DNA from: Plicaturopsis crispa FD-325 SS-3
Taxonomy: Eukaryota; Basidiomycota; Agaricomycetes; Amylocorticiales; Amylocorticiaceae
Reading direction: 5' to 3'
DNA: 64,000 nt
NCBI GenBank assembly: GCA_000827205.1
Contig: KN832570.1
Coordinates: 468,128 to 532,127 of the forward strand
Shown here in pieces: positions 18,198 through 42,777 of the stretch; within the stretch, counting starts at the first letter, position 1, and the number at the start of each line of letters is the position of its first letter. The notes beneath the pieces are model-generated. The model ran no database searches, was not told where the DNA came from, and saw only the letters and a program-made list of their open reading frames with translations. Position numbers and translations under genes: made by a program.

Positions 18198-18855
18198 TCA
18201 CTGCACAAGTCCTTCAATTTGGGCTACGTTTAGTCCCTGAAGCTTCCCTTGCGGGTTTTCCAGCTGGCGCCTATCGCAAAGTAGAGGTTACCAGCACACC
18301 AGCCAGTGAGACAGAGAATCTCACCTAGCAATGCTTTGGAGCGCTCGCTCGATAACCGAGTAGATGTCCTCGCGTTTACTGATCATATATAACTGCGGGT
18401 CAGTTGCCGACGCGCGACGAGATCCAAATGTTCACATACTCGACGGGGAATTCGGATGTCCCACATCCCGGTGCACCGTGCTCACAAGCTACTTCGATAG
18501 GGTTGAAGGCTGGAGTATTGTCGATGCGTTTCTCGGGTCTGTTCAAGCAAAATGCCCTCAATTCAGCTTCGGTCGCACGACGGAATACAAGCACCCACGT
18601 ACACGGTAAGAAGGTCGGTTGTCCCACTCCCCACACATCCCGGCGCACCATGCTCACAAGCGACGGCAATAGGATTGAAGGCTGGAGTATCGTCGATGCG
18701 TTTCTCGTGACTTTTCGAAGCCGAATGGTCAGAGATCAGTAAATCTACGTGCAGCGAGGGGACAATAGTTATAATTGGTCAACCTACGCGATGGGCATGG
18801 CGAGGGCCATAGACAAGACGAGAGAGCCTGAGGCGACGAGAAGGGTGAAGCGCAT
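18198..18855 (-). CDS. Small secreted Cys-repeat protein C (Kex2-type precursor)
   Basis: Hand-spliced to five exons and about 133 residues. Exon 1 encodes the signal peptide from ATG at 18855 and stops at the codon for Ala after MPI. Exons 2 and 3 are near-duplicate modules: HEKRIDDTPAFNP...ACEHGAPGC and PEKRIDNTPAFNP...ACEHGAPGC, each with a CX6C pair and a KR site. Exon 4 starts DKREDIYSV and exon 5 starts RRQLENP; the end is GLVQ. Every junction splits a codon after its second base (phase 2). KR sites suggest cleavage by the Golgi protease Kex2, releasing short Cys-paired peptides; this is inferred. The last two exons are homologous to those of gene B (20354-20999). No family known to me by name fits; function unknown. 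Confidence 0.7.
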
Positions 18856-18895
18856 GGTCGCTGAAATTGGTATGCTTAAAATTAGGGCGTGACGA

Positions 18896-18908
18896 GGCAA
18901 CCTGTGCC
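18896..18908 (-). promoter_or_regulatory. Shared leader motif, gene C
   Basis: GGCACAGGTTGCC, one of four matches to GGYACAGGYTRCC lying 40-135 nt before the ATG of each secreted-repeat gene. It directly follows a TTTTCCAG that could be a 3' splice site, so the motif may begin a noncoding leader exon. Confidence 0.6.
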
Positions 18909-18953
18909 TGGAAAAGAGAGAGAGAGTAGAGTAGGTGGTAAGTGGGCCAGAAA

Positions 18954-18981
18954 TGAGCGCAGCTGCAGAACATAATGCTCA
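18954..18981 (-). promoter_or_regulatory. 28-bp shared core-promoter element, gene C
   Basis: Begins TGAGCATTATGTTC and ends AGCTGCGCTCA, so the outer arms TGAGC/GCTCA are inverted. A TATAAA (18996-18991) ends 9 nt upstream. The same 28-bp element sits in the same place before genes A, B and D. Confidence 0.75.
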
Positions 18982-18996
18982 CCATGCTACTTTATA

Positions 18997-20353
18997 AACT
19001 TGTTAAAGTTGCTATCCATGGACAGCTGCGTGGGTCGCTCGCTATATGAAAATGCACCGCCTGCACCGGTCATTCCTGGAGCATGGGCCACTGCATATTG
19101 ATCATCATAGGACTTGACAGATCACTCATGCGACTTCTAACACGACGACTGCATTCCATCGACAAGGACTCCACAACCCTTCACATGCATCGCGGGCCGG
19201 GGTACTCTATCCTTACTTGGAGTGCAGTGGAATGAGATGAAGTGCAGCAGAGCAAAAACACTCACGTCAGCAGCCAGTTTGGTCTCGGACTTTCGGTCAA
19301 GTTCAGCAAGGCTACGGAAAAACGATTGGGTGTGGCGCCGCGGCGGTAGCATCCGGGTGTCCCGCCAGGAGGGGGCCGAATGTGGGTGAGTGTGAGCCTT
19401 AGATGACAAGACCTCAATGACAATAAACGATGAGATGTCCGCCATACTAGGTTACTAGGTCTTCATCAATCGCCTAACATTTGCTCTCGCCTAATGCAAT
19501 TCACGCAACCAGTGTAGATGGGAGGGGTTCATATGATCAGAACGCACTCGGCTGCGGGTCTGCAGACGGGGAACGGGGAACGGCTCGAGGACCTGATACA
19601 CATATGCGTAAGTCATTCCTACTAAGTCTCAAGTTTGTGTACGATTTAGCCACGACGCACCGTTGACTTCGATATCATCGTGTCCTGCTCAAACGCTCAC
19701 ATGCCTGTCTGTTGTGTTTGGGTGTTCGAAATTGATCCTCTCGAGAGCCAGAGAAAGTGATTGCAAGCGTCCTTTCCTTCGCAGGACGGTGCGACCGATA
19801 ACACTGCGAGTAAGTTATGGCGAGACAAGAGATTGCTGAGTGCGAGGAGCTCGACGTGGCGGCCCGACGAATACACATTACCAAATCGGGAATGAGCGAC
19901 TCGCGACGGGACCCGGCGGCACATCTACTTCTCGCAGGTCTGGGACTGTCCAGTAGCACACCCAGATACGGGGCCCGTGCCGCTGTCTCGCCCAAGGTCG
20001 TGCGACGTGTACGCAGAGGTCTGCAATACTTGAGCATCTTACTCACATTAACCTGCTGACCTGCGGTCGCAGACCCTAAATTTCATGCACAGGTCGTTTG
20101 CAGGTCGTATCTCAAGGACGTCCGCGACACGAAGAATTGGATAACCACGATTTCGACTAGTACGAAGCATGTACTAGTGAAGCTTGACCCGCGTTGTGGC
20201 CAGCATATATTATCCTCGATTCTTGGTTCCTCAGCAGAGGAGTAGCTGGGAAAAAATCATTTGAGGCGCCCCACCTAAAGTAAGTAATAAGTATTGAATA
20301 GACTTGGAAACGTCTCATTCATTCAATAGGAGAACTTACACCATCGCCTGCGC
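18997..20353. other. Upstream of gene C and downstream of gene B; no recognised gene
   Basis: TAGGACTTGACAGATC at about 19108-19123 recurs upstream of gene B at 21260-21275, showing that the two genes share a duplicated promoter region of at least 300 bp. The frames in 19137-20059 are short and unlike any family I know. I cannot support a gene. Confidence 0.45.
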
Positions 20354-20999
20354 TCACTGGATGCCGACGGCCGCTTTGATTCTGGCGAGTCTGTCCGGGG
20401 TCAGTCCTGGGCCGACGTCAAGCTGGCGCCTGATAAAGGCGGAAGGGTTAGTCCACGTCGTATAGGGAAGATGGCAGCATCTACCTCTCGATATCTTGCT
20501 CCATAGGCGAACGGATCCCCTCACGTTTAGGCTGGTGCCTGTCCAGGTCGAGGTCAGGCCAGAGTGAGCTAACTAGGAGAAGGCTTCATCTACTCACCAT
20601 TGAACGTTTTGTAGAGATTCTTCGACAGCCGATTCGAGCCCACGTATCTGGCTACTGCTTACATCCAAAGTTTAGTCCCGTACCTACTAGTCTCAAAAAA
20701 CAAGACCTACTGGCTGATCTCGCTCGTTATTTGCTGGATGGGAGGGGGGATATCGACGTTCTCTATGATGCCATTCTGCGAGACAATGCGTTTGTCTTTC
20801 AAGGATGTGCATTCAGGGTTTCCGAGGTGGGAGCCCGCGCAGGTGGTTGCGGGCAAGATCGGTCCGCGTCTGTTATATCACGCAGAGATTAGAAACATGT
20901 CACTTCTCCGGGTAAATCGAAAGCAGATATGCACACAATGGGGACAGAAAGAGCGCTGGAAACTAGGGAGGCTGAGACGGCGAGAATGGCAAAGTGCAT
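20354..20999 (-). CDS. Small secreted protein B (relative of gene C)
   Basis: Hand-spliced to five exons and about 136 residues from ATG at 20999. Exon 1 is a signal peptide (MHFAILAVSASL). Exon 2 carries two Cys (TTCAGSHLGNPEC) and a DKR site, then an amphipathic stretch IPPPIQQITSEIS. Exon 4 holds QPKREGIRSP and exon 5 starts RRQLDVGPGLTPDR and ends AVGIQ. Exons 4-5 match exons 4-5 of gene C in length, KR position and the R|RQL junction, which marks the two as paralogues; gene B has only one Cys-containing module. All four introns are phase 2. Shares the 28-bp promoter element and leader motif. The acceptor of intron 3 was chosen (GACAG) because it alone keeps the homologous frame. Function unknown; probably secreted and Kex2-trimmed. 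Confidence 0.65.
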
Positions 21000-21041
21000 T
21001 TTGCGGGACTGAGGGTGCGTAAGAAAAGGGTGTGAATACGA

Positions 21042-21054
21042 GGCAGCCTGTGCT
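21042..21054 (-). promoter_or_regulatory. Shared leader motif, gene B
   Basis: AGCACAGGCTGCC on the minus strand, the weakest of the four leader-motif copies (first base differs). It lies 43 nt upstream of the ATG. Confidence 0.5.
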
Positions 21055-21100
21055 TGCAGAGTTGAAAGGGAGATTAGATTGATAGTAAGTGGACGTGAGT

Positions 21101-21128
21101 TGAGCGCAGCTACAGAACAAAATGCTCA
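21101..21128 (-). promoter_or_regulatory. 28-bp shared core-promoter element, gene B
   Basis: TGAGCATTTTGTTC at the start and AGCTGCGCTCA at the end, with TATAAA (21143-21138) 9 nt upstream. Two central differences from the gene C copy. Confidence 0.72.
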
Positions 21129-21143
21129 CCCTGCCACTTTATA

Positions 21144-21951
21144 TGCGAAGGCCTGTATTGCCATATTGATTTAGAAGGAGCATACCGACAACACCGGTCA
21201 TGCATTCATGTCAAGCTGAGAACGGTGACGCTAGGGGCACTGAGTTCACTGATCATCAGTAGGACTTGACAGATCGTTCAAAGGTTAGAGCGCCGTTTGC
21301 GCTACGACTGAGTTCAATACTCCACAAGTTCTGACATGTAGCGGTGTTGTATGTGCAATTGTAATGCAACTGTGCGCAAGTTAGCTATGGAAACGAAGCG
21401 CAGCAGGACCAGATGATTATAAGTACTCACCGCAGAGGCAGCCTGTCTTCAAGTTCTATGGCTTGAAAGCGGTAACCATGTTTTTCAAGGCGATGGATTA
21501 CTCCGAGCTTCGGTTGCTGGACTGCAGCTGTTTTGGACGTACGCGTCTCGGTCATGATCACCAGTCTACTGTATATTTCAGTGGTGTGTACTCGGAATGC
21601 ATCAAGAGGCTGTGGCGGCAGTAAGCGTTCGAGCTGTGAGATCGAGGGTGACTTCTAGGACTCCCTGATGAAAAGATGACAAGTGCACAGATATCCGCCG
21701 TAAGGCCTCCGGATCATCACAGCGCGGCAGTGTCGATTGACATTCGCTCCCCGACCGTGTATAAAATCCAAGGTGTTGATGAAGAGAAGTCGCGCGACAA
21801 GAGACCCTGCCTGAGAATGGGATGATTATTGCAACGTATGGTGGCCTGAACAACTTGACAGTAATTGAAACCCGTATGCACTACAACATGAAATCTATGT
21901 GGAGTGATAACATAAGCATGTTAAGGCTTAAGCAGCTTTTCGATTTCCCTT
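21144..21951. other. Between genes B and A; no recognised gene
   Basis: Contains the gene B upstream region, including the 16-bp block at 21260-21275 shared with gene C. A short piece at about 21443-21453 (GAGGCAGCCTG) resembles the leader motif and may be a relic of another family member. Otherwise nothing. Confidence 0.4.
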
Positions 21952-23744
21952 TCAGCCATATATCTTCTCAAAGGCATTTTGAAATGCTGTAGGCACGTCT
22001 GGCTGAACTGTCCCGGTGCACTCCGCCCCAGCGTCATCGCGCCCACACGTGGCAATAAACCTGGACTCAAAGCGTTTCTCGTTCCTGTTGTATTACAGAC
22101 GTCAGTCGTATCCCCAGTTTGGCGCATCATTTAGACACCTACTGGTCGGCATCCTCGACTGGCCGCTCGGGGACCAGAGGGGGAATCGGCTCCAGTCTAC
22201 CGAGGGGAAAAAGCTCAGTTAAATTCCTGTCCGCCACGGCACAGAGTATGACGCACCCGGACAAACGTTTCTTGTAAATCCCGTTGATTGCTTCGCACCG
22301 CGCGGAAACTTCACCTCGTGCACACTCATAGACAGGCAGGTGGAAGTTGCTCAAGTTGAACCGCCTGGATAAGCCGAGATTTTAGTCCTGCCGCTGCCAT
22401 TTCAGCGTCGCAACACGCACTTGACAACATCCTGGGCCAGAGAGCGTGCCACACGCCTGAGGAGTTCTCTTCAGTCATTGCCCGCTGTAAATTAACAAAA
22501 CGAAATCGACGTACTCAATCAAATGTCTCTTGACGATCCCGGTAAAGGGGTTCGCTTCGCACCGCGCCCCGACCTGAACCTCGCCGCGCGCGCACGCTAG
22601 GTGAGACGGGTCAAACGAAGTCTTCTCTTGTCTGTGGAAAGAAACCGGGATGTCAATCGCGCGTCCAACCGCTACAGGACGGGACGCACTGCTGGCTAGC
22701 CGGCTGTGCTGGAGGGAACGACGTCAGCAGCCTGTCAGCGGCGGTTTGAGGCGAGCGTTTCTTGACGATTCCGGTGAATGGGTCCGCTTCGCACCGCGCG
22801 CCGACTTGGACCTCGCCACGCGCACACGCTAGGTGAGACGGGTCAAACGCAGGTTTCTGTTGTCTGTGGAGATTGGGATGTTAGGAGTGGTGCTGCGAGA
22901 GCAACCATTACGGGACGCACTGGGTAGGAGCGCCGGTGGTCGTGGGGGGGAATGACTCGAAGAATCTGCGGACGGAGACAGGCTTAGTCGGATCGCTGGC
23001 CGCCATAGCACAAAAGTGGACGTACTCGTTCGGATCTACACGCTTCTTGTAGATTCCGTTCGCGTTTTTCTCGCACCGAGCCGAAACCTCACCGCGCGCG
23101 CATGCTAGGTAGGAGGGGTCAAACGCAGGTTTCTCTTGTCTGTGGAAGTTAAGATGTTAGTCGTGCTGTTGCGAGATCGAGTATTGCAGTACGCACTGGC
23201 TGGGAACGCCGGTGGTCGTGGGGGGAAATGACTCGAAGAATCTGAAGACGATACAGTCTTAAGTAGTGGAATTGTTGTGCGCTACAGCATAAGAATGGAC
23301 GCACTCATTCGGATCCACACGCTTCTTGTAGATCCCGTTCGCGTTTTTCTCGCACCGAGCCGAGACCTCGCCGCGTGCGCACGCGAAGCGGAGGTCGTCC
23401 AAGTTCAAACGCTCGTTGAGGTCGCGACTGGTAATATGCAAAGGAGCTCAGCTACACTTGTTTCCATGTGGGGCAAGGATGTTGACTGTGACGCACGGAA
23501 ACCTGACATCTCCGTACACTGTGTCGCTGCACTGCTCCCCGGGTGCACACTTGACGGGAACAGGGGCGAACGAGATGTGGTTCAATTGCGGGATATCCGT
23601 TGAGCGCCTGCGTCGGTCCGGCAGCAGTCAGAATGTCTGTCCTCCATATGCATAAGTAGATTGGGAGAGGACATACGCTACGGGTGCAGCGAGTGCGCCG
23701 GAGACGGCGAGCGAGGCCGAGACAGCAAGAAGGGCGAAGTGCAT
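21952..23744 (-). CDS. Secreted multi-repeat precursor A with KKR sites
   Basis: Hand-spliced to 12 exons and about 375 residues; ATG at 23744, stop at 21954-21952. Exon 1 is the signal peptide. Five exons (3, 5, 7, 8, 10) each carry one module: ACARGEVSARCEKNANGIYKKR in exons 3 and 5 (CX8C), ACARGEVQVGARCE with GIVKKR or GIVKR in exons 7 and 8 (CX10C), and ECARGEVSARCEAINGIYKK in exon 10. Exons 4 and 6 are 45-nt spacers reading FFESFPPTTTG. Exon coordinates include 23607-23497, 23427-23305, 23241-23197, 23139-23026 and 22965-22921. All 11 introns are phase 2, mostly with GTGCGT or GTACGT donors. KKR/KR after each module suggests Kex2 release of disulfide-paired peptides (inference). The final exon starts NEKRFESRF and has its own Cys pair. 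No known family by name. Confidence 0.75.
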
Positions 23745-23877
23745 CGTAGTGAAAGTGCGGTGGCGTGAATGAGTGATCGTGGTGATTAGGGCGTCGATCG
23801 TAAATTACTGTGGGTGGTATACCATATCAGCCTTGCACACAACGACCGTGCAGAAGAAAGTGACGAGGGACTCACGA

Positions 23878-23890
23878 GGTAACCTGTACC
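23878..23890 (-). promoter_or_regulatory. Shared leader motif, gene A
   Basis: GGTACAGGTTACC preceded by TTTGCAG and followed by CTCGTGAGT, so it could be part of a short noncoding exon bounded by two introns. Confidence 0.6.
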
Positions 23891-23924
23891 TGCAAATGAG
23901 ACTGGTAGATGTATGGATGTGAAG

Positions 23925-23952
23925 TGAGCGCAGCTGGAGAGCACAACGCTCG
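23925..23952 (-). promoter_or_regulatory. 28-bp shared core-promoter element, gene A
   Basis: The most diverged copy: CGAGCGTTGTGCTC at the start but the same CAGCTGCGCTCA end. TATAAA (23970-23965) ends 12 nt upstream. Confidence 0.65.
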
Positions 23953-23970
23953 CCGTGCTCGAGCTTTATA

Positions 23971-24682
23971 CCTCGCCGGATACCTAGTGTCCCCCTGGCC
24001 AGACACCATCGGTAGACCATCCATCCTTGTCGGGTACCTAAGTTTGACGTGCGGGCGCGTATTAATAGCGCGCCGACTCCATCGGTCAGTTATGCGACGT
24101 GGTGGCCGGATAGTGACCACCGCGATGTGAAGCCGTCAGGTGAGCCGTACCAGATATTGAAGTGACATTGTAATACACTGCGTCGACATGCAGTGCTCGA
24201 CTAGATTCGACATGCAGTGAATGATCAGGCGTTGCAGTAGAGTGCGCACTTTGCGGAGAGCCGCATGCCGAGAGAAGTAGTATGGTCGCGTCAACGGCAG
24301 GCTTTGGCGGAGCCCAGGATGATCTAGGTGAGTACCCGATGACAGGCCGTGGCGGTGCGCGACGAGTTTCGGACGCGGCACGGTCATTCACCACTTTGCA
24401 CTACGCTCTGCGAAACGCTGAAGAATCATGAATCACTGTGAGTCGTTAAGGTGATTGTATAAGATAAGAAGCTGAAAGAAATACACGAGTACAAGCGTCC
24501 AGATCGTCCACACAAAGTAGTACAGATCACGCAGTCTACAGAGTCCCGGTGGCGTCTGCCTCTGACCTAACCATTGAGCACCCTAGAAACGAAGGGCTGA
24601 GTAAGCACGGCACATACACCCGTCAGAGCACAGCCCTCAAACGACACTTGCTCACCGAGCACCGAGCAAATACATATACAGG
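23971..24682. other. Upstream of gene A; no recognised gene
   Basis: Promoter-side sequence of gene A and 3' flank of the next gene. No supported coding region or repeat. Confidence 0.4.
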
Positions 24683-25215
24683 TCACGGCAAGCGAAACCG
24701 CTGTGGATGCGACGACCTAACAGTCGCCCTAAAAATCGGCGAGAGCACAGACGCGTCCGCGCACGGCGCTTGGTTCTCTAAGAATATATCCATCACGACC
24801 TGCGTCCTGCCCGCGCACCCAGCGGCCGGCCTCTTGCTCGCGTCCGCCGCCGCCCACCCCGCGCGCAGCAGCGCCTCGACGCCGCCGTTTCGGGGATCAA
24901 AGGCCCCTATCTTGACGACCTCGAGAAGCTCGAGGTGGAGGGCGGCGAGGAGGGCGGGGAAGGGTTTCCGGAGCCAGTCGGTGCGGTTGTCGTGGACGTG
25001 GAGGAGCACGAAGTTGGCGTCGTCGGTGAAGGCGCCGAGGAAGAGCACTTCGTGCGTGTGCCGCGGCTGGTTGACGAAGCTCGGCGTGATGGCTTTTAGC
25101 ATGCCATCGTAGTCGACGTTTGCGAGGTCCTCTTTTTTTTGGCGACGACGTTTTTGTCAGCTCGTGTGCGTCTGGAACGGAACAGATGCAACTGGGCCTT
25201 ACCGAGGAAATGCAT
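24683..25215 (-). CDS. Unknown 153-residue protein
   Basis: Two exons: 25215-25203 (MHFL plus one base) and 25131-24683, joined with a 71-bp intron (GTAAGG donor). The product starts MHFLEDLANVDYDGMLKAIT and contains NQPRHTHEVLFLGAFTDDAN and FVLLHVHDNRTDWLRKP, a pattern of alternating beta and alpha segments suggestive of a small globular cytosolic domain. A TATATATA box at 25281-25288 and a CT-rich leader before the ATG support a real promoter. The weak points are an acceptor preceded by eight A residues instead of a pyrimidine tract, and a GC-rich third position that lengthens frames by chance. I do not recognise the family. Confidence 0.5.
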
Positions 25216-28200
25216 GGTGGTAGAGAAAAGTAAAGCGGTCAAAGCTGTCGACCTGGAACACCGGTACTGCTCCTTGTGGCCTATATATAGACACCTGTTG
25301 GGAGGCCGTACTCACTCGTTACGCACAGCTCTGTGCAAAGAATATTCGCGAGTTTCAACCAGACTTTTCAGAAGCTGAGCTCGAGTGTACAGTACTGCGC
25401 AGAAGTACAGCAGCGAAGTCGCAGAGCTCGAGAATCCACGACGCCACATTTTTTTCGCGGCGTCCTCGGTCGTAAATGAATTGTAAAAGAAAGGGTCCTC
25501 AGACTTGCCTTATACTAGTGCATGATCAAGGATTCTTGCGCCCGGATAGACTTTTTTATTGGCAAAACTACGGCCAGCAAAGCACCGCGGGCATAGGCTC
25601 GCAGAGACGCGTTGATAAGGTAGCCGGGGTTCTTCTGAAAAAGCGCGCTTTTCCAGGAGAAGGCTCAGCGTCGTCAAGACTCAACAGCCCGCAGCTCGTA
25701 AAAACGCACGCGAAAGAAAGTCAACACGATGGCGAACATAGAACATGGACCCACAGCGCACGCTAATTGTGAAACCGTTGAAGGTCGCGAGCGTTAAGGA
25801 TTAATTAGCGACTCATCCCGCCGAAGCGCGCAGAGGACGCTAAGCATAGATCACCGACGCGACGCTACGTACGCTGCCGGCACACAGAGACATGCGGGTG
25901 CGAGGGCGACGGCGCTGCAAACCGCGGGCCACGGATCTCGAAAGCAAGAGCGTGAGCATGCGAGGAATAATCGATGGAACGCACTGGGGGACGCGGATCG
26001 TCGGAGACGTGCATAGGCGTCATATGGCGCCGGGCCATAGTGCGAGGGGCGCTTGTTGTCTTTTAACTGGAGCCTTTGCGTTTAACACACAGTATATATG
26101 TATTGTAGAATAGGAGCAAGGAGGATGAGGGCGAGAAGGGAAGGGGTGCGAGCGCCACGGGCGTTCGAGATTTGGGCCCTGGAATGCTGGGAAGCGCTTC
26201 TGCGTGGCCATGAGGAGGATTGTCGCCGTCCTCGCTGCGATCGTCGACCAGCACGACACGCGTACGCACATGGAGCCATACCACTTACTACTTTTCCCGG
26301 CAAAAAAAGTAGATCGGTCAGGTAGCATAGCTACACCGGGCACGCAGCTGGAGGTGACGAATCCACGTAGACTGGCAGCGACTCCGTGATCAACGCACAG
26401 CCGTATGTGTTCATGCACGATGCACGAAGAAGCATCAGCATCGCAGCGGTCGACGTCGAAAGCCTGAAGCCTGAATGCTAAAAAACGCGCTCGTGCCAGT
26501 GCTCGGGACTCCGGAAATTGGGCGCAGAAGTCGCGCGGTGGGTGGTTCGAGGCGCAGGAAAGCGCATCGTCGGTCCAGGATGGGGAAAGTGGGCGCATGA
26601 CGCTGCATAGAGAATCGGAGCTTGCCTGGGGAAGAAAGTGGTACGATCAGACCACTGATGCAGAGGCACGGGCACGGAGGTACGAGCAGCGGGCACAACT
26701 TGGGAGAGACGCATACGGCGGTCGACGTTCAACGTTAGAGCGAGATAGCCTCTAGCAACGACCAGTGCAAGTGGCGAGTTTCCGGGACACGAGAAACGAG
26801 GGCCGAGGCAGATGGACAGGATGGTATCATGGTACGGCATGCACTGCTGTCCAAGCCCGAAGAGGACGGGTACGACTCACTAGTGGGAGCAGAGATGCCA
26901 GCGCCGACGGTGGCAGACAGTGGAGATAAACGCGCACCCGAGTTACATCCATATGTAGGAAAATGGGAGCAGGAGAATGCCGGTGTGCCTGCATTCATGA
27001 CGAGCTGGAGATGGGAAAGGCGTATATACTCGCAGATTATACCCGCACACTTGTCAATGCCTGGGGCTCTATCGACTTCCTGCTCTCTAGCGCAGCGTTG
27101 GCAGTGAGGTCTCTGCGGAGATGAACTCCTCCAAGGAAAACACCCGGAAAGGAAACGTCGAAGGCGATGGACTCTTGGGGATTTCAATTTGCCAGTGAAC
27201 ACCCACGAAGAATCGTCTCGCATGAATATTCCAGAGAGTCGACGAAGACATACGGAGATGGCGGGTTTACGCTGCGTCGGACACGGCGATGGCCACGATT
27301 GCACGTTTGGGACTAAAACCGCACGATGTCGAGTTCGCCGCCGCACGATACAATGCCCTGACAATGCCCCAAGACGCACCGCCCACAAACAATGCACGCC
27401 ATATGTGCTAGCGCATTGTTAGGCTGTTCCGAGTATGGCGCGCGGCGCTGGAGAAGGGCGGGAGGAGCGTCGTGTTCGCCTCGAGGACACCGCCGTCTGC
27501 GCATGAGGCCCGCTGTGACATACCGTTGACTGTAAATATCTCCGCCCCGACGCTGCCTCGAGGCCGCACCTCGGTTATTACAATTTACATTGGCGGTGTC
27601 AAATTCACGGTTCCGCCACCTACATACGCTAGATAGCTACGCATACATACATCTGTCTACCAAGCACCTTGCAGTGCTTAGATCCTGCTATATCCTATAG
27701 CATGTCCGACTGCAAGTTCAGCGGACGCAGCTGCGATGGAGATATCCGAGGAAAAACATAGAGCTCTCGGCTTACCTCAGCAGGTCACCGGAATACGTAC
27801 TGGACGCCCTCGGATGGAAAGTTCGAAGGCAAGCGAAGGCATCATCCGAACGGTAACAAAAAACAGGTGCCCTCAGATGCCGTAGAACCGTTGGAAATAG
27901 GGTTCGACACGCCTGTCCAGGGTCAGCGAGATGCCTTTTCTCGAAGGCTGGGCGAAAAATCCTCTTATACAGGCGTCTGTTTGCTATACCTCTTCTGCGT
28001 GAAAACTGCCCTTCATAGACTTCCAATTCTCTTCTCTAGACTCGCCCTTGTCTCGTATATTTACCAGCTCAGGCTCCTTTTGTGCGGGCGTAGAGGGCAA
28101 GTTGTAGACACGACTTGTAGCCGCCCACCGAATCCAACAAAACGGCATACCATCCTCGCCGACGCCCATTCAGGAATTCATAACGACTCCCTTCATATTC

Positions 28201-28391
28201 ACTTTCCGTGCGTCGTCTCTCCTTTCCCTCTTACCTCCACCATCTCCTTCGCGTCCCTTCTAACCGCCATCCGTTTTTCTGTTGTAGTCGCGTACCCCCC
28301 GCGAGTCCCCTTCAAGACCCCCCACATACCTCTCGAAAAGCGCGACACTCGCAGCTTCCCGTAGACACCCCAAACGCGCCAATACGACACC
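25216..28391. other. Long region without a recognised gene
   Basis: 3.2 kb. The longest frames (26020-26598 and 26735-27397, both minus) have the Arg/Ser/Pro-rich composition of chance frames in GC-rich DNA and I see no domain. From about 28150 to 28391 the sequence is CT-rich and is the probable promoter and leader of the gene at 28392. Confidence 0.4.
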
Positions 28392-32830: not shown

Positions 32831-35627
32831 ATGTCTACACGCCGTTGGCGCCATCGTTCGATACTCGTCTACCGCTGGATTTTGTCTGTGTTCCGCAGCG
32901 TTTGGCCGGCCGTTCGACTCACACAGCGCTGGTTCAAGCTCTTCGCCGCCTTATGGTCGTTTCTGAGCCGGGGCAGACGCCCGAAGGGCCCGAATGACCG
33001 GATTCCGCCTGCGAAGCCTGCAGACGATACTGTGGAAAGATGGTGCCCGGGCCATCTTTGCGGGGAGGAGCGTACGACGGCTAGCACTGCATGGGCGAGT
33101 ATAGTTCCCCATGCGTTGGAAGGCATCGTAGTCGAATCTCCAGGATCGGTGTATGCGGAACAGTCCAGTCGTCCAGAATTGACAGCGCCTGCCTCATCCC
33201 GGTCCCCTCCCGACATCCGCGTAGACGTAGCTCCATTGCCGTCTGAACAGGATTGTTCGCAGACGCGAGACTCGACGCAAGAAGACGGGCGCAGTCGGAC
33301 CCTACCGCCTCGCTATATACGTGTGTCACCAAACAGTCACGTAGCGGACCCTGCATCAGCTTTAGACGTGGTAGAGGCATTACCTATCGAGCGTCGATTT
33401 CTACATCCCGTGGTCCCCAGGTCGCGAGCAAAAAGACGATACACAAAACCTGAGACGTGCGTGCCTTCCATTTAATATGCTGTACTGATCCTCATCGTCG
33501 GTCAACACGTAGGCCACTTCAAGTGCAATCAGAATATTTAATACCTGCATTCCAGAGAACATTTGATCGCGCGTATGTTGATGTATCGATACCCACTCTA
33601 TGTTGTATTAAAACCTTCCTCATGCAGTGAAGAGCTGCCACCTGGGTGGACCGAGCTCGTACATCCAGGGGGGACACCCTATTTCTTCGAAAAGACCCTG
33701 AAGACCGTTACGGACGCATGGATCTACGACCCTGCAGCCCTGCGGTCTGTCGAGTACTTCGTCCGTAAAGTCTACGATATCGCAAAGCGAAATAAGATCG
33801 AGATACCCGCTACCGCCCACCTGGTGCTGGAGCTCTTCACGTCGAGCATCTTGTCGGGGCAGTCGGTGTCAGGCTGGTATTATTTCGTTGACCATAGCAG
33901 CCAGTGCTTGTTCTGGGTGGAGGAGTTCGATGTCAAGTATCACGTCGCTGAGACGCGAGCTCCTATAGAGCTCTCAGATTTCAGTACGTTTGATTATGCA
34001 CTGAGGGATCTGATTTAGCGTACTGAATTGTCAACGCGCCGTAGAGTATGAAATGGAGGCATGGTACTGGTAAATTGTTCGTCAGTGAGTGCCCATGTAT
34101 CTTTTATTACTTCGTCGCGTCCTCTCAGAGCTGACTTTTGTTAGAGACATCCCGCTTCAGCGTTATGCTCACTTTGTCTAGGCTACACCGAGAAGACTAC
34201 CCTGGTCTCTCTGACCTGTCCCACGATGTGATCCACAACTTGAAGAAAACCCTCTTGTTTTCCCTCGGAAGTACGAACGCGTTTGTCTGTCAAAGTCATT
34301 TCATCTTTGCTGAAGCACTCCCGGATGCAGATGTCCTGACCTCGGAGAAGACGATCATCCCGTTCACTCAAGAGAAGCTCGAGTCAATGCTGCGGCTAGT
34401 CAATGATGTATCGTGTAGTAAGTTCTTGTGTGTTTTCGCTATTATACTGAAAGGATTTGATAGTTGACTGTGTTCAGTCATGGATGAATCGAACGAGAAT
34501 GCAGTGGTCGAAGTCTCTATAGGTATGATTGAATATCTGTACAAGTGTGCTGTTGCTCATCATCTATCCAAATAGCACGAATTCTACACGACTACGGTGA
34601 GCTGCGTGGCGCGAATCTGTCCACACCATCTGGCTGAACGTAGCTCTCCCAGCTCACTTACGATTCATCAATTTCCACGGGGAAAAGCACCACCGGCTGC
34701 GGCGTGACCAAAGCATGTACGTCCAGGACCCGAACGAGCACTTCTCCAGGGTCGTGCTAGGCCTTCTCTCGCCCTTCCTTTTTTACGCCCCGAATGCGCA
34801 CATGAAATCACTGAGCAACGCATATGTCGACCGGATCGCCATCGAAAGTGTATGGAAGGAGTTCATCGAGCGACTTCACAAGGAACTGCAGGACTTCCTC
34901 CTGCTCGTGCGTCTCTGCGTTCGGATGCTTGATTATTGCTGAAACTTCACCGGGTGTCAGGCTGAAGTCCTGTTGACGGTCAACGTATCCTTCTTGGCCA
35001 TCCAGAGCGTGGATGGCTCTGATGCGGAGAATCTACGTTTCCCACTGCATCGATCCGCGGCTCAGATTGCGAGCTATGTCTCGACTATCATGACGCTTGG
35101 CAGCATCGTTCTGGGATTACTGCTTGTCCGACACGGTCAGACGAAGGCTCGTGCCAATCGCGAGGAGATTGTACGTTTTCAATCTTGCTATTTATCCCTC
35201 CGACCATCGTCTAAGATTTTGCAGCAACTGTTTCTTGACGAAATGGCGTATTCGACGCTGGGACTTGGGAAAGTTGCCATCATATACAGCTTGCCGTACG
35301 CTTTCCTTATGTGGGGGTGAGTTCTCCCTCTCAGCCCTTGAAGTTGTACCGTCCTCGCAAAGCTGACATGGCGTGCATAGGATGGTCTCATTCGCCGGTG
35401 CATTCTGCGCGATGTGCTTGGTGAACGGCGATCTTCCGACGCGTGTGGCTATCGCAGTGTCCGGCGGTCTCACCGTATGGCTCATATTCTGGTACGCGTC
35501 TTGGGAGGGCCAGCTCTGGGTCAGGTTATGGTTGATGCAGTTCGACTTGCGGTCGAAGATCGCGTCCTCGAGGAGAAACCTTGTCCGTTTCCTCCGCAGA
35601 CACGGCGCGATACGTAGGACGTTTTAG
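32831..35627 (+). CDS. WW-like domain protein with C-terminal membrane segments
   Basis: Multi-exon gene; the start is the first ATG of an open exon to 33456 and is uncertain, and one tiny exon near 33556-33572 may exist. Clear exons: 33628-33983, 34045-34069, 34182-34420, then short exons to 35627, with family-like junctions. After a basic N-terminus with a hydrophobic stretch, EELPPGWTELVHPGGTPYFF is a WW-like start, followed by IYDPAALRSVEYFVRKVYDI and SGWYYFVDHSSQCLFWVEEF. Later LRFINFHGEKHHRLRRDQSM and LSPFLFYAPNAHMKSL lead to a C-terminal membrane part (ASYVSTIMTLGSIVLGLLLV, LGKVAIIYSLPYAFLMW, VSGGLTVWLIFWYASW). This architecture is familiar from large families in mushroom-forming fungi with no assigned function. 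Probably membrane-anchored by its C-terminus. Confidence 0.7.
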
Positions 35628-35694
35628 AGGGCTCGAATAGATATATATGCAGTTCAGATTCAGTTGTTACTTGAGATGCCATCTAGATTATCTT

Positions 35695-36732
35695 CTAGCA
35701 GATGAAAACCGCGAAATGCGATTCCCTTTCAGCGACGGGTGGCTTCGTCGCTGTCTGAGCTCCTTCGCCTTTGACGCCCGACTTGTCGTGTCCAAGGGTC
35801 CCGTCGTTCCTGGACGGTGTCTTGTTGCGGCGAGAAAGGAGCACAAGCAGAGGCGCCATTCCCTGAATAAAGGAGGGCCTTGTCAGACGAGCTCCATGAC
35901 AGAACGACGCTACGCACATAGATTTGGAGCGCGATCGGGGCGAAGACATTTCTTGCCGGCAAGCCATACATATACAATCCCGCGTCAACAACCTGTGCGG
36001 CGGAATAGAGGATGGTCCAGTCGATATAAGAGGATTGGAGCTTCTGGCAGTAAAGGTGAAGCGTCAGGGCTAATATCATAGCCAGCTCCCCATTCGATAT
36101 GCTGCCGTGGATAGCCGTGTCTAACGTCGCGAAGAGTCCTAGCGCTCCGAAAACTGGGAGATGTCAGAACTGGAGCGGGGGTACTAACAAAATACTCACC
36201 CAGAGCGGCCAATGCAAGGAGCATGGGTAATACGACAGCTTTAAAGTCTCGTCTGTAGCACCAGAGACCACGAATCTATGTGTCTCCGCGTTGAGGGCTA
36301 TGCAGGGTAAACGGATGGAAAGGAGACTTACGAGGGATATCTGCCCGATGAAATTGATCAAGCCAAATATCAGGGATGAGCTCAGAGCTATCGTAGTTTG
36401 CCTGGAGGTCGAGATCGCCCATGCCTAGATTAAAAATTAGAGGGGAGTACTGAGTATCTGTTGGATACTGACCGATCCTTCGTTCACGCTGTCGATATTG
36501 AGGGCCAAGTGCGCAGTGCAGAGTAAGAGCGATACAAAGGTGATCCCAGTCAGAACTGGATCGAGCGTTGACCATCCATGTTTTAAGGAGAGTGTAATCG
36601 ATAAAATAACGAAGATTCCTAGGAGAAAAAAGTTATCGCGAGCGCTGCTAAGTCGACAGTCTGCTTACCGTATGTCACAGTTTCGGCGAAAAATCCTACA
36701 AGCGCGCTTTGTACATGAGCGTTGGCTAGCAT
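35695..36732 (-). CDS. Multipass membrane protein, basidiomycete family
   Basis: Six exons (36732-36669, 36618-36473, 36424-36332, 36275-36200, 36153-35918, 35862-35695) keep one frame of 260 residues. Hydrophobic helices include VQSALVGFFAETVTYG, IFVILSITLSL, LTGITFVSLLLCTAHLAL, TTIALSSSLIFGLINFIG, FKAVVLPMLLALAALVFGAL, GELAMILALTLHLYCQ and ARNVFAPIALQIYGMAPLL, giving about seven membrane spans and a short charged tail. The start FFAETVTYGIFVILSITLSL resembles integral membrane proteins that are expanded in basidiomycetes and sometimes likened to seven-helix receptors; no ligand or function is known. It is convergent with the WW-like gene (67 bp between stops). Confidence 0.7.
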
Positions 36733-37681
36733 AGCTTCAGATTGAGAGATTTGGGGCGTTGAGAGCCTGTACCGAGAGGTGTCGGTGATTTTAAGACGAG
36801 GAGCAGCGCAGAAAGGAAACGGAAGGGAGACGGATGGCCGAAAGTAAAATGAACGTCGATAATGTACCTTCTACGCATTGGATTGGCAGTTTTGTTCGCG
36901 GTCCACGGCGCGAGAGTGCCAATACAGTACGTACAACATTCGCCTCCAGCGCATGATCATGCCTGCGAGAGCTCGGGGGCTGAGTTTACTCTGGAGGAGG
37001 TGTACACATCATCGAAGTTGTGGCTGGAGCGCGATTTCAAGCAGTTAAGACGTACCTGCACGTTGGTTGCAGGTTCATTTCCGGTTTCCTGAGAACTTTG
37101 CGGAGTGTATGTCTTTCCAAATCATGGCAGTGCGCATGGTGTCCAGGTCCACATGATGCGCATGGAACGGTGGATCGAGGAGAAGAGGGAAAACGCGCCC
37201 AAGGTGTGGCAGGTCAACGCCTGACACGTCCTACTCCGTGACGGTGACGCAGAAGGTCGACTCGAGGTCGACAGATAAATCAGCGACCGTGTACCTCCGT
37301 CCCGGAGGCACTTTTTGGAGGAATTTCACCGTTGAGTAGAGACAGAGAATGTACATTCACCGGTGCCCACGGTCCTACATACTAAACACGAATAAAACAG
37401 TGGAGCATTAGTTGTTTGGAGCAGACATCGCGAAGCGTCAACAGAACTTACAGTAACAGAACACCATGATAGCGCCGGCCGGTGAAGGCAACGCGGTGAA
37501 ATCTTCCTCAGCCAACGTCAATGGGCTGCGGCTATCCAACCAGCTGAAGCAGGCGGTGGCAAGCAGCGTATGGCGGCGCATGGCGGCTGGCCCGACCAAC
37601 AAACCCGGTAAATCAGATCCTCGCTTAAGACTCAATCAAATCACCGGAGAAGGTTTCGTCCGACACTCGTGGCTTCGCTCT
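36733..37681. other. Intergenic with a possible short secreted-protein remnant
   Basis: A plus-strand ATG at 36862 begins a signal-like peptide (MYLLRIGLAVLFAVHGARVP), and a frame at about 37107-37223 ends MERWIEEKRENAPKVWQV before TGA. These could be first and last exons of a small gene, but I could not join them with convincing splice sites, so I do not call it. Confidence 0.35.
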
Positions 37682-37684
37682 TGA

Positions 37685-38240
37685 CACTGGAGGAAGTGGC
37701 GTATGTAACGCTCTGTTACATGCGAAACCCACGAAATACACTGTCACAAAGTGTTATGGATGTGACGGGCTGTTACACCGTGAACTCAGTCGGACTGGGT
37801 CTTCACTGAGACAGCCTCGTTCCATGGCAAGGTCAGTCTCAATGTGTTCACCATGTTCCGAGCAGCTACATGCACGAAACATTTAGCATATATCTGGCCT
37901 GTACTTTACATGGAACAGAGTGTTTTATTCAAAATATTCCAAGCATTTTACGGCAAGAACCAGGTTAAATACAGGCAACGAGACATTCTGAATGAACACT
38001 GCCTGAAACAAGGCAGATCACTTGTACGACAATCTGGATGTACGTGGTCGTACCATGCAGAATGAAACAGACCTGAACATGCTGAATGGATCGGGCGGGA
38101 ACATGCTGAATGGGCCTTCCGTGGCATTGCGCGGTTCAGTTTGCATGTTCCGAGCTGAGCCACCCAGAATGTCACGAAAGGCCTGTTCCCCGCCGTTTCA
38201 TTTTGAATGGTTTTTGCATGGAACGGCCGGAGACATGTGA
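37685..38240 (+). repeat. Left inverted arm of the foldback element
   Basis: Pairs with 38345-38898 in inverted orientation. Recognisable blocks in both arms include CACTGGAGGAAGTGGCGTA, the stretch around the CACAAAGTGTTATGGATGTG block, and CATTCCGTGGCATTGC-like pieces further in. Boundary of the arm towards the centre is approximate. Confidence 0.8.
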
Positions 38241-38344
38241 AGGACACGCAATGAATCCCTCGTGAATCACGCTCGAATCAGCCGTGATTCGAGCCAAATC
38301 TGCGAATCCTTTGTGAATCAGGCGTGATTGTCAAGTCCATGTGT

Positions 38345-38898
38345 TCAGTGTGGCTCGCGTCGTTCCATGCAAAATCCATTCAAAATGAAACGGCGGGGAA
38401 CAGGACCGTGACATTCTGGGTGGCTCGGCCTCGAACATACAAACTGATCCGTGCAATGCCACGGAAGGCCCATTCAGAATGTTCCTGCCCGATCCACTCA
38501 GAATGTCTAGCTCTGATTCATTCTGCGTGGTACGACCACGGACATCCAGAATGTCATAGCAATGTCACGCTTTCCTCCATGCAGGTTACATTCAGACTGT
38601 TCCATTGCATGTATTTACGCTGGCATTTGCCGTTAAATGCTCGGAATATTCTGAACAAAACACTCTGTTCCATGTGAATTACAGGTCAGATACATGCTAG
38701 ATATTCCGTGCATGTAACTGCTCGGAACATGGTGAACACATTGAGACTGACCTAACCCTGGAACGAGGCCGTCTCATTAAAGACCCAGTTTGACTGAGTT
38801 TCGGGTGTAACCGCTCGTCACATCCATAACACTTTGTGACATTGTATTTCGTGTATTTCGCATGTAACAGAGCGTTACATACGCCACTTCCTCCAGTG
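38345..38898 (-). repeat. Right inverted arm of the foldback element
   Basis: Inverted partner of 37685-38240. The roughly 100-bp centre between the arms (38241-38344) has its own small palindrome, CTCGAATCA-GCCG-TGATTCGAG, near 38270-38291. Confidence 0.8.
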
Positions 38899-38901
38899 TG
38901 A

Positions 38902-39380
38902 TTTCCAAGTCTTCCTCCACACTCCCATCTGCGTGCGCTGGGCTCGGACGCCAGGACACCTGCGTACATACGTATAAAATACGGCTGTGGTACCGACTCT
39001 GACAGTACGTGTGTCAAAAGAGGCGGTCTGGCGTCTCCGTCGAGTCTGCCTGACGTGTTGACGCGCGACTCATCGAGAGCGCCCACTGGTAAGCAAATCA
39101 TCCATAGAAATATGCTAATGGGAAAAAACATCGTCGCAGACGTTCGTAGCGGAGCAAAAGCTCGTCATACTTTCCCAGAGTCATATAAGTAGGCGATAAT
39201 CCGTCGGTGGGACTGGGCCCAGGGAATGGTCAATAGCACAATCGCGCAATTTGTTCACGCAGAACATGGCAAGCACTTGGTGAGCAGAACAATCTATATT
39301 GAGTAAAAAATGCTACAAGAAGACGAATTCATTAAGCTATCGTCATGTCGTTAATCTGCGTCGTGGTCATGTCTCAATGC
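38902..39380. other. Intergenic
   Basis: Between the transposon and the 3' end of the next minus-strand gene. Nothing recognisable. Confidence 0.4.
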
Positions 39381-40668
39381 CTATCTTCGGTACATCTTGT
39401 TCCACGACTCGTTTACCTCCTCCAGGGCTCTCCGCCTCCCCCTGGGTGTTCTATTAGCCTGGCTCGCCCTTCCCTCACTCCAATCTGGCGGCGCCTCCTC
39501 GGCAGGCGAATATTCTGGCAGAGGCTCATCCATCGACATGGTGGGTGAAAGGTCCTGGGCATCGTACGGTCTTCTTCGAATTTTGAGAGTCCTTGATACT
39601 TCATGTACGTCCATGCTGAAGGAGTCCTTTTTTGGAGAGCCTGGTTCCCTTTGGGAAGAGACGTGGACCGCTGGGCCTGGATGTCTCTTCAGAATCGCAT
39701 CCCAGAAAGCGGCATTGTTCGTTCCAGCCGCACCGCTTAGCTCGTTTTGCGCATCACGTTTATGGTCTGGCGAAGGGTGCTCCCTAGATCTGTGCTGCCG
39801 TGGACTTTGACGTGCTTCCCGATCACGTTGCGAACGAACTTGACTCCTAGCTGATGCAGCCGCGCGCAAGTCTCCGTCGGAAGCTCTACGTGGTTGACGA
39901 GGCTGTCGAAATCCGTATTTCGGTCGATGGGCATGATCTGGGAAGTGTCTTGGAGGCCAGGCCGTCTTTGTATACGCGTCGTTCAGTTCCAGAGGAGGAG
40001 AAGGTCGAAGTGGGCTCGAAGCAGGACTGTGGTAGTCTCCGTCGGGCAAAGGAATGTTGCGTTTGCGCATTGTCGGTGGAGTTCGAGGTATAGGACTACT
40101 GTGAGGTGACATTTCTGTGATGCGTGCTCTCTTGAACTGATTCCATTCAGTCAGTAGGCCATTTCGGTATCGCTTCGGAGTCTGGACTGACCTGGTTCTC
40201 TGTTTGCTTCTGCGCTGCGTGCGACGCGTACAACAGTGGCGAATCTTCCTGTACTGGAGATCTATGGACCATGATACCCTCGTCCGTCGCACTGGGGACG
40301 CCCAGGACTGTTTGTATTGTGTCCATTTCCATTGCGGTCATGTCGGCCCAGTCTCGCATTCGCAGGCCGGTTCTCTTCAAACGCTCTCGCCACTCGTTTA
40401 GCGCGAGGTACTGCAGCTGGACGATTCCGCCCCATTGGTACTCGAAGACGCGTTCGTTGGATTCCAGCCGTGCGCGTTGCACAAGCTGGCGGTCCCAGTT
40501 CCGCCAGTGCATCTCGTCTTTCTCGGGCATTGGCTGGTGGCTGGCGCGGGTATACCGCCACGGGGTGTAGCTCCGCGCTTTTGCGAGCGACGTCTCCAGA
40601 CCAAACCACTCGTCGCGGATCCGTTGTGCTTTTGATACATGGGTTCGCCAGGCTGCGATCGGTGACAT
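39381..40668 (-). CDS. Short paralogue of the 10-kb coiled-coil protein
   Basis: Two exons (40668-40192 and 40136-39381; 55-bp intron, phase 0) encode 410 residues. The N-terminal half carries KAQRIRDEWFGLETSLAKAR and NEWRERLKRTGLRMRDWADM, closely parallel to SDRVRNEWDLFELWLADE and LEWKNRLADSGLDPDDWDM in the 10054-13460 protein, including the following IQTV/CQEV segment. The second half is Arg/Ser/Pro-rich and probably disordered, ending NESWNKMYRR. It lacks the long coiled coil. The ATG at 40668 was chosen because the upstream extension in frame reads like noncoding sequence and because it aligns with the start of the paralogue's conserved block. Function unknown. Confidence 0.7.
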
Positions 40669-41482
40669 GACTGGCTCGCGGGAGAATTTATGACGGATTT
40701 GATATGTGAAGGGGGCCGTTATATCATAACGTTCGAGTGCAAAAATGTGGCGAGTACAATAACTGTCGAGTATACAACAGGAAGCGTAGTCCCTGTTGTA
40801 TACCCGACAGATAATAAGGGCATTGCATGCCTTCGCTTCGGCCTTTTGCGACGACAAAGGTTGGTACGACGACAGCGTCGTGCCAAAGAATAGACAAGCG
40901 AGCTCCGCCTTGTTCGAGTGTCAAAGCAAGCTATGTCGCACATACCTTTTGTTCTTCAAAGACGGCCCACGAGCGATGTATACAACTATTGCCTAATGCG
41001 AACGTGTTTCCATAGCTCGCGGACTTTCAAATCTCAACAGCTTGCTGCAATTTTTCCAAGCGATTTTGACCCGAATATGTGCTGCTGCATGAAGGACCTG
41101 CGACGGTCATTGAAGGTCAGGTAATACGCACAGAGAAAGACTTCCTATGCTGTCCAGAGATGCAAAGTAACGACATCACGAAAGGTAACGTTTTGACGGG
41201 GACCTGACTTCACGGGCCATGCATGTTTCGCAAGAATGTGCGTAATTCAGAACAGAGAGCGTTACATGAGGTCGATGTACGCACATGCAATGGGGTTCAT
41301 ATGCGAGCGTGCGAGGCAGGATCAGCTCCATGGCGGTAGAACTCATACGTCTGCTAGTTACGCAACCTTGGAACATCTGTCTGAACCGTGTGCGAGATGT
41401 CGTGATATCGTGAAGGCTTGGTAACTACAACTGCTCGTACATACACTACATTCCAAGGTGTCCGAATGATTGAGTAGCGTCA
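40669..41482. other. Intergenic
   Basis: Upstream of the coiled-coil paralogue and 3' flank of Pmp3. No supported gene. Confidence 0.4.
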
Positions 41483-41917
41483 TTACATAGCGCCCTCGCT
41501 CCTTGATATGATATACCTACGACGACAGTTAAGTAGGGCCAAGGGTCCGTAGCAATCCGGGAGAGCTCACCAAGCATGAATTACTCCTGGAATCCATCCG
41601 GCAATAGTAAGACATATATTGATCCAGAAATCTAACGACGAATATGAGCCACTGCGTGGAAGAAAATGGGGCGTGATCGCACCTGATCGCACTGACCTGC
41701 TGCACATCCGCGCTCTAAGATCATTGGTAAGCATCCGCCGGTCGGGATTCATCAGGCACCTAAAAGCTCGGGACGTACTGAAGAACACTGATACGGGCGG
41801 CAGCAGTCTGGGAATCCGAATCTGATGAGCACAGCTGGGAGTAAACGTTGGGATAGGCACTCACATGGCCAGGAAATAAAGGAGAACGTCACCCGTTGAA
41901 GATACTTTGGTGGCCAT
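41483..41917 (-). CDS. PMP3: Pmp3-family plasma membrane proteolipid
   Basis: Five exons spliced by eye give 64 residues: MATKVSSTGDVLLYFLAILL, PPVSVFFKRGCAADFWINIC, LTIAGWIPGVIHAWYIIS, RSEGAM. This is the UPF0057/Pmp3 pattern: two hydrophobic helices joined by a short loop with the diagnostic KRGC..DFWIN segment and GWIPGVIHAWYII. Family members are small plasma-membrane proteins affecting membrane potential and salt tolerance. One internal exon (AGCGCGGATGTGCAGCAG) is only 18 nt, encoding KRGCAA; the conserved motif makes that junction secure. Four introns in a 195-nt coding sequence is unusually dense. Confidence 0.88.
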
Positions 41918-42594
41918 TATCTTAAATTTTCCAAACTGTGTGTGGCAGAGTCCGTTTCAATGCGAAATTGAGCTAGAGCTAAGAGTAGAGAAACAAAGAC
42001 CAATTGCAAGGAAAGTGAATCATGGTCGACATGCCGCAGTGCCGTGGGAGGCTGCTGACAAGCAGGACCAAACAACCGCTCAAAATTTACTCGCAAGGAG
42101 AATCCGGTCAGATGCGGTCGTACATGGTTAGCCTTGCTCTTTTTATTCAAATTCTTTATTCTGTTTGCTCTGACAGGGATGAAAATGTCCCTCAAGCAGT
42201 CTGCACTCTGAACTGGCGAATTTTGGCAAAACTGGCAAACACTGGCGTGGGCGCTTATTTGGCTCCACATTTGATGAAGTTATGGATGACATGCGGCTCT
42301 ACGGTTCGGATTTGTGCCAGCTTAGCACAGCACTGAATCGTCGAAGCAACTTCCGCTGGTAGGTGTCAACATGGGTATTACCGACTCGGACACCGTAATT
42401 CCCCTGTGCACTGCAGCAGTGACTGTAGCCCGTCGAGTCCGAGTCGGTGCGTCCCCAAGGGTGTAATCATTGATCTGGTTTCATGTAGCGACTCCGGTGA
42501 CCATAAGCTCTCCGTAAGGCTTGTTTCAGCTCCTGCGAACTGCCTTCCCCAATGGCTTTGGTGTTCTCGGCGGACAGTATATAACGTGGCACAG
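41918..42594. other. Intergenic between Pmp3 and gene D
   Basis: Divergent upstream region. TATATAA at 42578-42584 belongs to the promoter of gene D. No gene seen. Confidence 0.5.
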
Positions 42595-42622
42595 TGAGCA
42601 TTATGTTCTGCAGCTGCGCTCA
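42595..42622 (+). promoter_or_regulatory. 28-bp shared core-promoter element, gene D
   Basis: TGAGCATTATGTTC start and AGCTGCGCTCA end; by eye identical to the gene C copy over all 28 bp although 24 kb away and on the other strand. TATATAA ends 10 nt upstream. Confidence 0.78.
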
Positions 42623-42657
42623 CTTAACGTCCTCATACTCTCTTTCGCATTTCTCCA

Positions 42658-42670
42658 GGTACAGGCTACC
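42658..42670 (+). promoter_or_regulatory. Shared leader motif, gene D
   Basis: GGTACAGGCTACC, preceded by TTTCTCCAG and followed by GGTTAGTACC. A leader intron from GTTAGT to AACAG just before the coding exon is plausible. Confidence 0.6.
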
Positions 42671-42777
42671 GGTTAGTACCATCGTTTTATGCATTTTTGG
42701 CACGATGCTTATTGACGTTCAACAGATTCACGAATCCTTAATATCTACGCCACTCGACTTATCTTAATATTATCAAC

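What the first reader, a model, noticed from the sequence alone, without database searches (positions are those of the whole stretch)
18954..42622. Shared 28-bp element next to the TATA box of all four secreted-peptide genes
A 28-bp element (starts TGAGCATT, ends GCTGCGCTCA) occurs at 18954-18981, 21101-21128, 23925-23952 and 42595-42622, always 9-12 nt downstream of a TATA box and in the gene's orientation. The C and D copies appear identical over 28 bp although their genes encode unrelated repeats 24 kb apart. Coding modules have diverged while this site has not, which implies strong selection on a regulatory or 5'-UTR signal. The outer arms are inverted (TGAGC/GCTCA) and the core has GCAGCTGC, so it could bind a dimer or form an RNA hairpin.
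Basis: seen in the sequence. Interest (0 to 1): 0.85.

Follow-up and report, generated by a model that had tools for sequence, protein, structure and literature searches.

The report
Family-specific core-promoter element, fungal peptide genes

Summary
In detail: the 28-mer is at all four places, in gene orientation, 9, 9, 12 and 9 nt after a TATA box, with no match in shuffles. In the 33.2-Mb genome, pattern scans at up to 3 mismatches find the four, one degenerate orphan copy on contig C7 and one chance match in an open reading frame on C6: no dispersed repeat, no wide regulon at that stringency. The shared block is larger than 28 bp: TATA box, element, a 5'-leader box and the signal-like first exon are homologous in all four genes, but the element is clearly better kept. 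Its last base lies 42-46 bp from the TATA box, where a review places start sites of several fungal genes. Best explanation (inferred): a DNA-level, family-specific initiator or factor-binding site at the transcription start of KEX2-processed-repeat (KEP)-like genes. Dyad and hairpin ideas are not supported: the right half is invariant, the left arm and CAGCTG core are not, pairs show no compensation, and only 1 of 4 distinct copies folds better than most shuffles. No start-site, expression or cross-species data were available.

The parts
18954..18981 (-). 28-bp element, gene A copy (identical to D copy)
18991..18996 (-). TATA box of gene A (TATAAA), first T 42 bp before the element's last base
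18892..18910 (-). 5'-leader box CAGGYACAGGYTRCCTCGT, gene A
18039..18855 (-). gene A, KEP-like secreted repeat precursor; hand model of 6 exons, 166 aa (exon joins chosen by me, first acceptor AAAAG is unusual)
21101..21128 (-). 28-bp element, gene B copy (26/28)
21138..21143 (-). TATA box of gene B
21038..21056 (-). 5'-leader box, gene B (1 mismatch)
20354..20999 (-). gene B, secreted precursor with one Cys loop and KR/RR sites; hand model of 5 exons, 135 aa
23925..23952 (-). 28-bp element, gene C copy (23/28; starts CGAGCGTT)
23965..23970 (-). TATA box of gene C (3 nt further from the element)
23874..23892 (-). 5'-leader box, gene C
22515..23744 (-). gene C, first 8 exons modelled by hand (258 aa, 3' end not resolved); CARGEVSARC-type repeats ending KKR
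42595..42622 (+). 28-bp element, gene D copy (identical to A copy)
42580..42585 (+). TATA box of gene D (TATAAC, within TATATAAC)
42656..42674 (+). 5'-leader box, gene D (3 mismatches)
42778..43961 (+). gene D, KEP-like precursor with Cys-rich modules; first 4 exons modelled by hand (181 aa), later exons only partly resolved
19099..19123 (-). second shared block, seen between A and B only (B copy 21250-21275), about 120 bp upstream of their elements

Best explanation
The 28-mer is a DNA-level core-promoter element private to one small family of secreted, KEP-like peptide-precursor genes. [quoted passage not shown] its invariant right half (GCTGCGCTCA) most likely contains the start site (TCA, +1 at or near the final A), and its left part (AGC.TT.TG) is probably contacted by a family-specific factor or by the initiation complex, so that all four genes start at one defined, co-regulated site. 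Shown: presence, conservation above background, spacing to TATA, restriction to the family at up to 3 mismatches apart from one orphan copy. Inferred: the start site, protein binding, co-expression.
For: (1) In six of six A-D pairs the element keeps 22-28 of 28 bases while third codon positions of the adjoining signal exon keep 37-60%; P per pair 8e-4 to 8e-10 under that rate (gaps in the codon alignment placed by hand). (2) In windowed comparisons the element stands out in the six A-D pairs (z 9.7-13.4) and the four pairs with orphan copy E (6.7-8.4); 30-250 bp upstream the six A-D pairs give z -1.3 to 2.5 except A-B (9.9 at 100-250 bp). (3) At E up to 0.1, D's region aligns with 1-30000 only in the inverted duplication and at promoter and leader. 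(4) Genome scans: four family copies, E, one chance match on C6. (5) Distance from TATA's first T to the element's last A: 42, 42, 45, 42 and, in E, 46 bp; a review gives 40-46 bp for U. maydis crg1 and mig2, N. haematococca PDA1 and C. cinerea clp1, and 35-40 bp for Cryptococcus (PMC9604717, passages). (6) E keeps the same 10 final bases.
Against: No start-site or expression data. No second species, so selection is argued from paralogues only. TATA, leader and first exon are also conserved (leader windows z 1.6-7.9 in the six A-D pairs), so part of the conservation is plain ancestry, and short-tract gene conversion could keep A and D identical. E has no recognisable family gene: signal peptides of A-D give no match better than E 0.36 in the 10 kb around it. 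The TATA spacing argument rests on my inference that this is a basidiomycete; the same review gives 40-120 bp for S. cerevisiae and 40-70 bp for S. pombe. Six unread 3-mismatch matches to right half plus leader against controls 1 and 0 leave room for further copies.
Confidence: 0.62

Rival explanations
1. Plain ancestry: promoter, leader and signal exon were copied together when the genes duplicated, and the 28-mer is just the luckiest part, perhaps kept alike by gene conversion.
For: TATA, leader and first exon are homologous too; A and B also share an upstream block; the locus has a large inverted duplication of high identity.
Against: Element identity exceeds third-codon-position identity in all six pairs; D-A identity falls right outside the element; E on another contig shares 19 invariant positions of 28 with the others while its own surroundings align only over 62 nt.
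Confidence: 0.22
2. It acts in RNA, as a 5'-UTR hairpin or an upstream reading frame.
For: TGAGC/GCTCA arms in 3 of 4 genes; an ATG inside copies A, D and E; the C copy folds better than most shuffles (z -1.86, 8 of 200 as good).
Against: The other three distinct copies fold no better than shuffles (z 0.52, 0.46, 0.28), nor do the four longer leaders (z 1.49, 0.86, -0.63, -0.03); no compensatory change in 6 pairs, 3 pairs broken in some copies; the ATG is TTG in B and GTG in C; with any start 30 bp or more from TATA the left arm would not be transcribed.
Confidence: 0.08
3. It is a fragment of a dispersed repeat or transposable element that landed at these promoters.
For: One orphan copy on C7 without a family gene.
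Against: 5 copies plus one chance match in 33.2 Mb at up to 3 mismatches; near-constant spacing to TATA in the family; homology extends over leader and first exon.
Confidence: 0.03
4. It is the binding site of a symmetric dimer (for example a bHLH protein at CAGCTG).
For: CAGCTG in A, C and D; partial dyad.
Against: B has TAGCTG, E has CGGCTG; the right half is invariant while the left arm varies.
Confidence: 0.05

Closest known systems
KEX2-processed repeat proteins (KEPs) of fungi (PMC7329392 passages; PMC9769878 abstract and passages; PMC6339444 passages)
   Same: Signal-like N terminus, repeated short modules with KR/RR sites, no Pfam family at cut-off for A-D and no PDB match for C's repeats.
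   Different: Here modules carry one or more Cys pairs and lie on separate exons in my hand models, and the genes share a promoter element; the word promoter occurs 0, 1 and 0 times in the three texts, the one time in a cloning passage.
Oomycete INR+FPR core-promoter block (PMC3599244, abstract and outline)
   Same: A 16-19 nt composite element at the start site that marks a regulated subset of genes.
   Different: There no TATA box was detected and about 13% of genes carry it; this one follows a TATA box and is confined to one family.
Effector-associated promoter motifs of plant-parasitic nematodes, DOG box and STATAWAARS (PMC10946958, PMC6062891; search listing only)
   Same: A short promoter motif that ties together secreted-protein genes.
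   Different: Those link many different genes (recalled); here the genes are paralogues and the element is at the core promoter.
Ustilago maydis mig2 cluster (PMC9604717, one passage; the rest recalled)
   Different: No 28-bp core element known to me; recalled, not tested.

Membership tests
KEP (KEX2-processed repeat protein) | N-terminal secretion signal | tested here: inconclusive
   Hydrophobic, mutually related starts such as MHFALLAVSASLAVSGALAAPVA in 4 of 4; no signal-peptide predictor on hand.
KEP (KEX2-processed repeat protein) | Repeats separated by dibasic KEX2 sites | tested here: inconclusive
   KR/RR enriched over shuffles in A (0 of 2000), B (0.026) and D (0.022), not in C (0.13) although C modules end in KKR; DNA repeats found inside A, C and D, none listed inside B; models of C and D incomplete.
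Dikaritin/ustiloxin-type RiPP precursor | UstYa (DUF3328) gene close by | tested here: not met
   6 of 6 listed matches to PF11807 lie on C1, C4 and C10, none on the window's contig C17.
Dispersed repeat / transposon fragment | Many copies across the genome | tested here: not met
   4 + 1 copies and 1 chance match at up to 3 mismatches.
Structured 5'-UTR RNA | Stable fold with compensatory changes | tested here: not met
   1 of 4 distinct copies folds better than most shuffles, no compensatory pair; no Rfam match at gathering score in the window.
Initiator-type core-promoter element | Overlaps the mapped transcription start | not testable with these tools
   Only the position fits: 42-46 bp from TATA against 40-46 bp in print.

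The most novel reading that the evidence does not exclude
The 28-mer is a composite initiator, 28 bp long, dedicated to a single fast-evolving secreted-peptide family: a private core promoter read by its own factor, which lets the peptide part be replaced freely while expression stays locked, with the orphan copy E still firing a transcript of its own.
Probability: 0.25. Interest if true: 0.65.

Novelty: new member of a known kind. Interest (0 to 1): 0.42.

Why it matters
KEP-type peptides are widespread in fungi and their functions are largely unknown (abstract of PMC9769878). A promoter element kept when the peptides themselves are not would give a handle to find further members that sequence search of the peptides misses, and to learn when they are made. 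It is also a compact case of a gene family whose start is conserved and whose product is free to change.

Tried and rejected
RNA hairpin, dimer dyad and upstream reading frame. Dispersed repeat and wide regulon. Dikaritin-type RiPP cluster: no listed UstYa match on this contig. The C6:533706 match lies in a long open frame on the other strand, without a TATA box at the right place: chance. A possible sixth, degenerate copy on C13:427834-427880 (TATAAA plus AGCTGCGCTCA; shuffle P 0.005, the best of 4 candidates tested) is left open: its flanks could not be read and it is not among the 10 matches of the right-half-plus-leader pattern (gene A is not among them either). Six of those 10 (C3 twice, C4, C9, C10, C13:910717; controls 1 and 0) were printed without letters and not followed. 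The leader box alone is not specific: 40 matches at up to 3 mismatches, 4 of them the family, controls 21 and 26. The model R1 also gave one weak match at window 4867-4942, E 0.45. No match in viral contigs, no Pfam family at cut-off for A-D (best below it DUF7631, E 0.0031, in D), no PDB match for C's repeats. The automatic gene models used start coordinates that were off for C and D and failed for B; they were replaced by hand models. The signal-peptide search was cut in print and was repeated for the C7 stretches and the window. Paper searches on promoter motifs of KEP genes listed nothing on such an element (8-15 papers listed each).

Full report
What was checked. The 28-mer is at all four stated places and in gene orientation. 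Two copies (A 18954, D 42595) are identical; against them B differs at 2 and C at 5 of 28 positions. The gap from TATAAN to the element is 9, 9, 12 and 9 nt. 100 shuffles of the window give no match.

Surroundings. The window is G000:C17:468128-532127 of a 33.2-Mb, 49-contig genome. It looks eukaryotic, with short introns; I infer a basidiomycete, no call names the organism. Gene starts: A 18855(-), B 20999(-), C 23744(-), D 42778(+). An alignment of the four gene starts shows a TATA box, the 28-mer, a pyrimidine-rich leader with the box CAGGYACAGGYTRCCTCGT, and a signal-like first exon that can end in a phase-2 GT intron in each gene. The first exons are related as proteins (A-C E 2e-4, B-C 8e-6, C-D 1e-4, A-B 0.012). 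So the 28-mer is the best kept part of a longer homologous gene start. Hand gene models, whose exon joins I chose, give KEP-like precursors: short modules with Cys loops (A CEHGAPGC, C CARGEVSARC, D CVGQAPGTPC) and KR or RR sites. Mature parts of A and C are related (0 of 500 shuffles as good), A and B weakly (P 0.008), B and C not (P 0.95), and D is not detectably related to A, B or C (P 0.43, 0.30, 0.55). Searches of the genome with A, C and D proteins and with C's signal peptide listed only loci of this cluster (the tool scored 2-4 candidates each); B's protein was not searched. No Pfam family at cut-off, no PDB match for C's repeats.

Is it more than common descent? In the pairs AB, AC, AD, BC, BD, CD the element keeps 26, 23, 28, 22, 26 and 23 of 28 bases; third codon positions of the first exon keep 10/21, 11/22, 12/20, 10/21, 7/19 and 10/20. 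Windowed z-scores for the element are 9.7-13.4, against -1.3 to 2.5 for the stretch 100-30 bp upstream of it, 0.4-4.2 for the 30 bp with the TATA box and 1.6-7.9 for the 80 bp of leader behind it. At E up to 0.1, DNA similarity between 38000-52000 and 1-30000 is limited to the inverted duplication and the promoter-leader. Gene conversion of a short tract is not excluded.

How widespread? The family-derived pattern at up to 3 mismatches finds 5 places: the four and C7:1327441. A pattern widened to fit that copy adds one on C6, which lies in a long open frame of the other strand and has no TATA box at the right place. The C7 copy (E) was found by the element alone; it has TATAT 46 bp before its last base, and the sequence-only model R1, built from A-D, scores it 25.9 bits, E 1.7e-6 over 299,028 bases, next to one weak match at E 0.45. 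No family-like signal exon is seen within the 10-kb stretch around it (best E 0.36); it lies about 145 nt beyond the stop of an opposite-strand reading frame. A TATA-plus-right-half pattern gives 9 rows: 5 rows for the four family copies (D twice) and 4 others, against controls 0 and 2; of the 4 others one (C13:427834) resembles the family but stays open. A right-half-plus-leader pattern gives 10 rows: B, C, D, E and 6 others printed without letters, controls 1 and 0. Scans were of one genome; no relatives are held.

How it may work. A review gives TATA-to-start distances of 40-46 bp for U. maydis mig2 and crg1, N. haematococca PDA1 and C. cinerea clp1, 35-40 bp for Cryptococcus, 40-70 bp for S. 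pombe and 40-120 bp for S. cerevisiae (PMC9604717, passages). The element's final TCA lies at 42, 42, 45, 42 and (E) 46 bp. The ten bases invariant in all five copies, GCTGCGCTCA, thus sit where initiation is expected, and the left half would be untranscribed. The abstract start of PMC11514446 (listing) gives 30-35 bp for metazoans; under that too the left arm stays out of the RNA. I therefore favour a DNA-level element: an initiator with an attached factor site. The factor is unknown. Folding and pair counts speak against RNA structure, the C copy being the one that folds better than most shuffles (8 of 200 as good), and the variable CAGCTG (B TAGCTG, E CGGCTG) speaks against an E-box.

Against this reading: no start-site, expression or cross-species data; other parts of the gene start are conserved too; E has no family gene; the taxon is inferred. 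Hence confidence 0.62.

Novelty. Conserved promoter motifs that mark secreted-protein or developmentally regulated genes are known in oomycetes and nematodes (PMC3599244, abstract; PMC6062891 and PMC10946958, listing). Searches of the open PMC library for a promoter element of KEP genes listed none (word searches in PMC7329392, PMC9769878 and PMC6339444). This is a new element of a known kind.

Noticed in passing
910-5035 and 45273-49596: Large inverted duplication (71-98% per block) brackets the peptide-gene cluster; it holds a tyrosinase-domain gene (Pfam match on the left copy; the right copy's ORF gave none) and a long repeat-rich ORF without a Pfam match. Recombination between the arms could invert 40-48 kb.
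   Followed up: partly
37684-38235 and 38351-38899: Inverted repeat with 493-nt and 54-nt arms, 85 and 91% complementary, around a centre of 115 nt; looks like a foldback element.
   Followed up: no
L030:7441-7468 (G000:C7:1327441-1327468): Orphan copy of the element with TATAT 46 bp before its end, about 145 nt beyond the stop of an opposite-strand reading frame; may be a relic or drive an antisense RNA.
   Followed up: partly
19099-19123 and 21250-21275: A 26-nt block (96% identical) upstream of genes A and B; an ungapped scan of the window at up to 3 mismatches found only the A copy itself, as the B copy has a 1-nt indel.
   Followed up: partly
18039-18855, 20354-20999, 22515-23744, 42778-43484: In my hand models all introns of the four genes are phase 2 and many fall at module borders, some inside or next to KR/RR codons, which would allow modules to be added or lost as exons.
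   Followed up: partly
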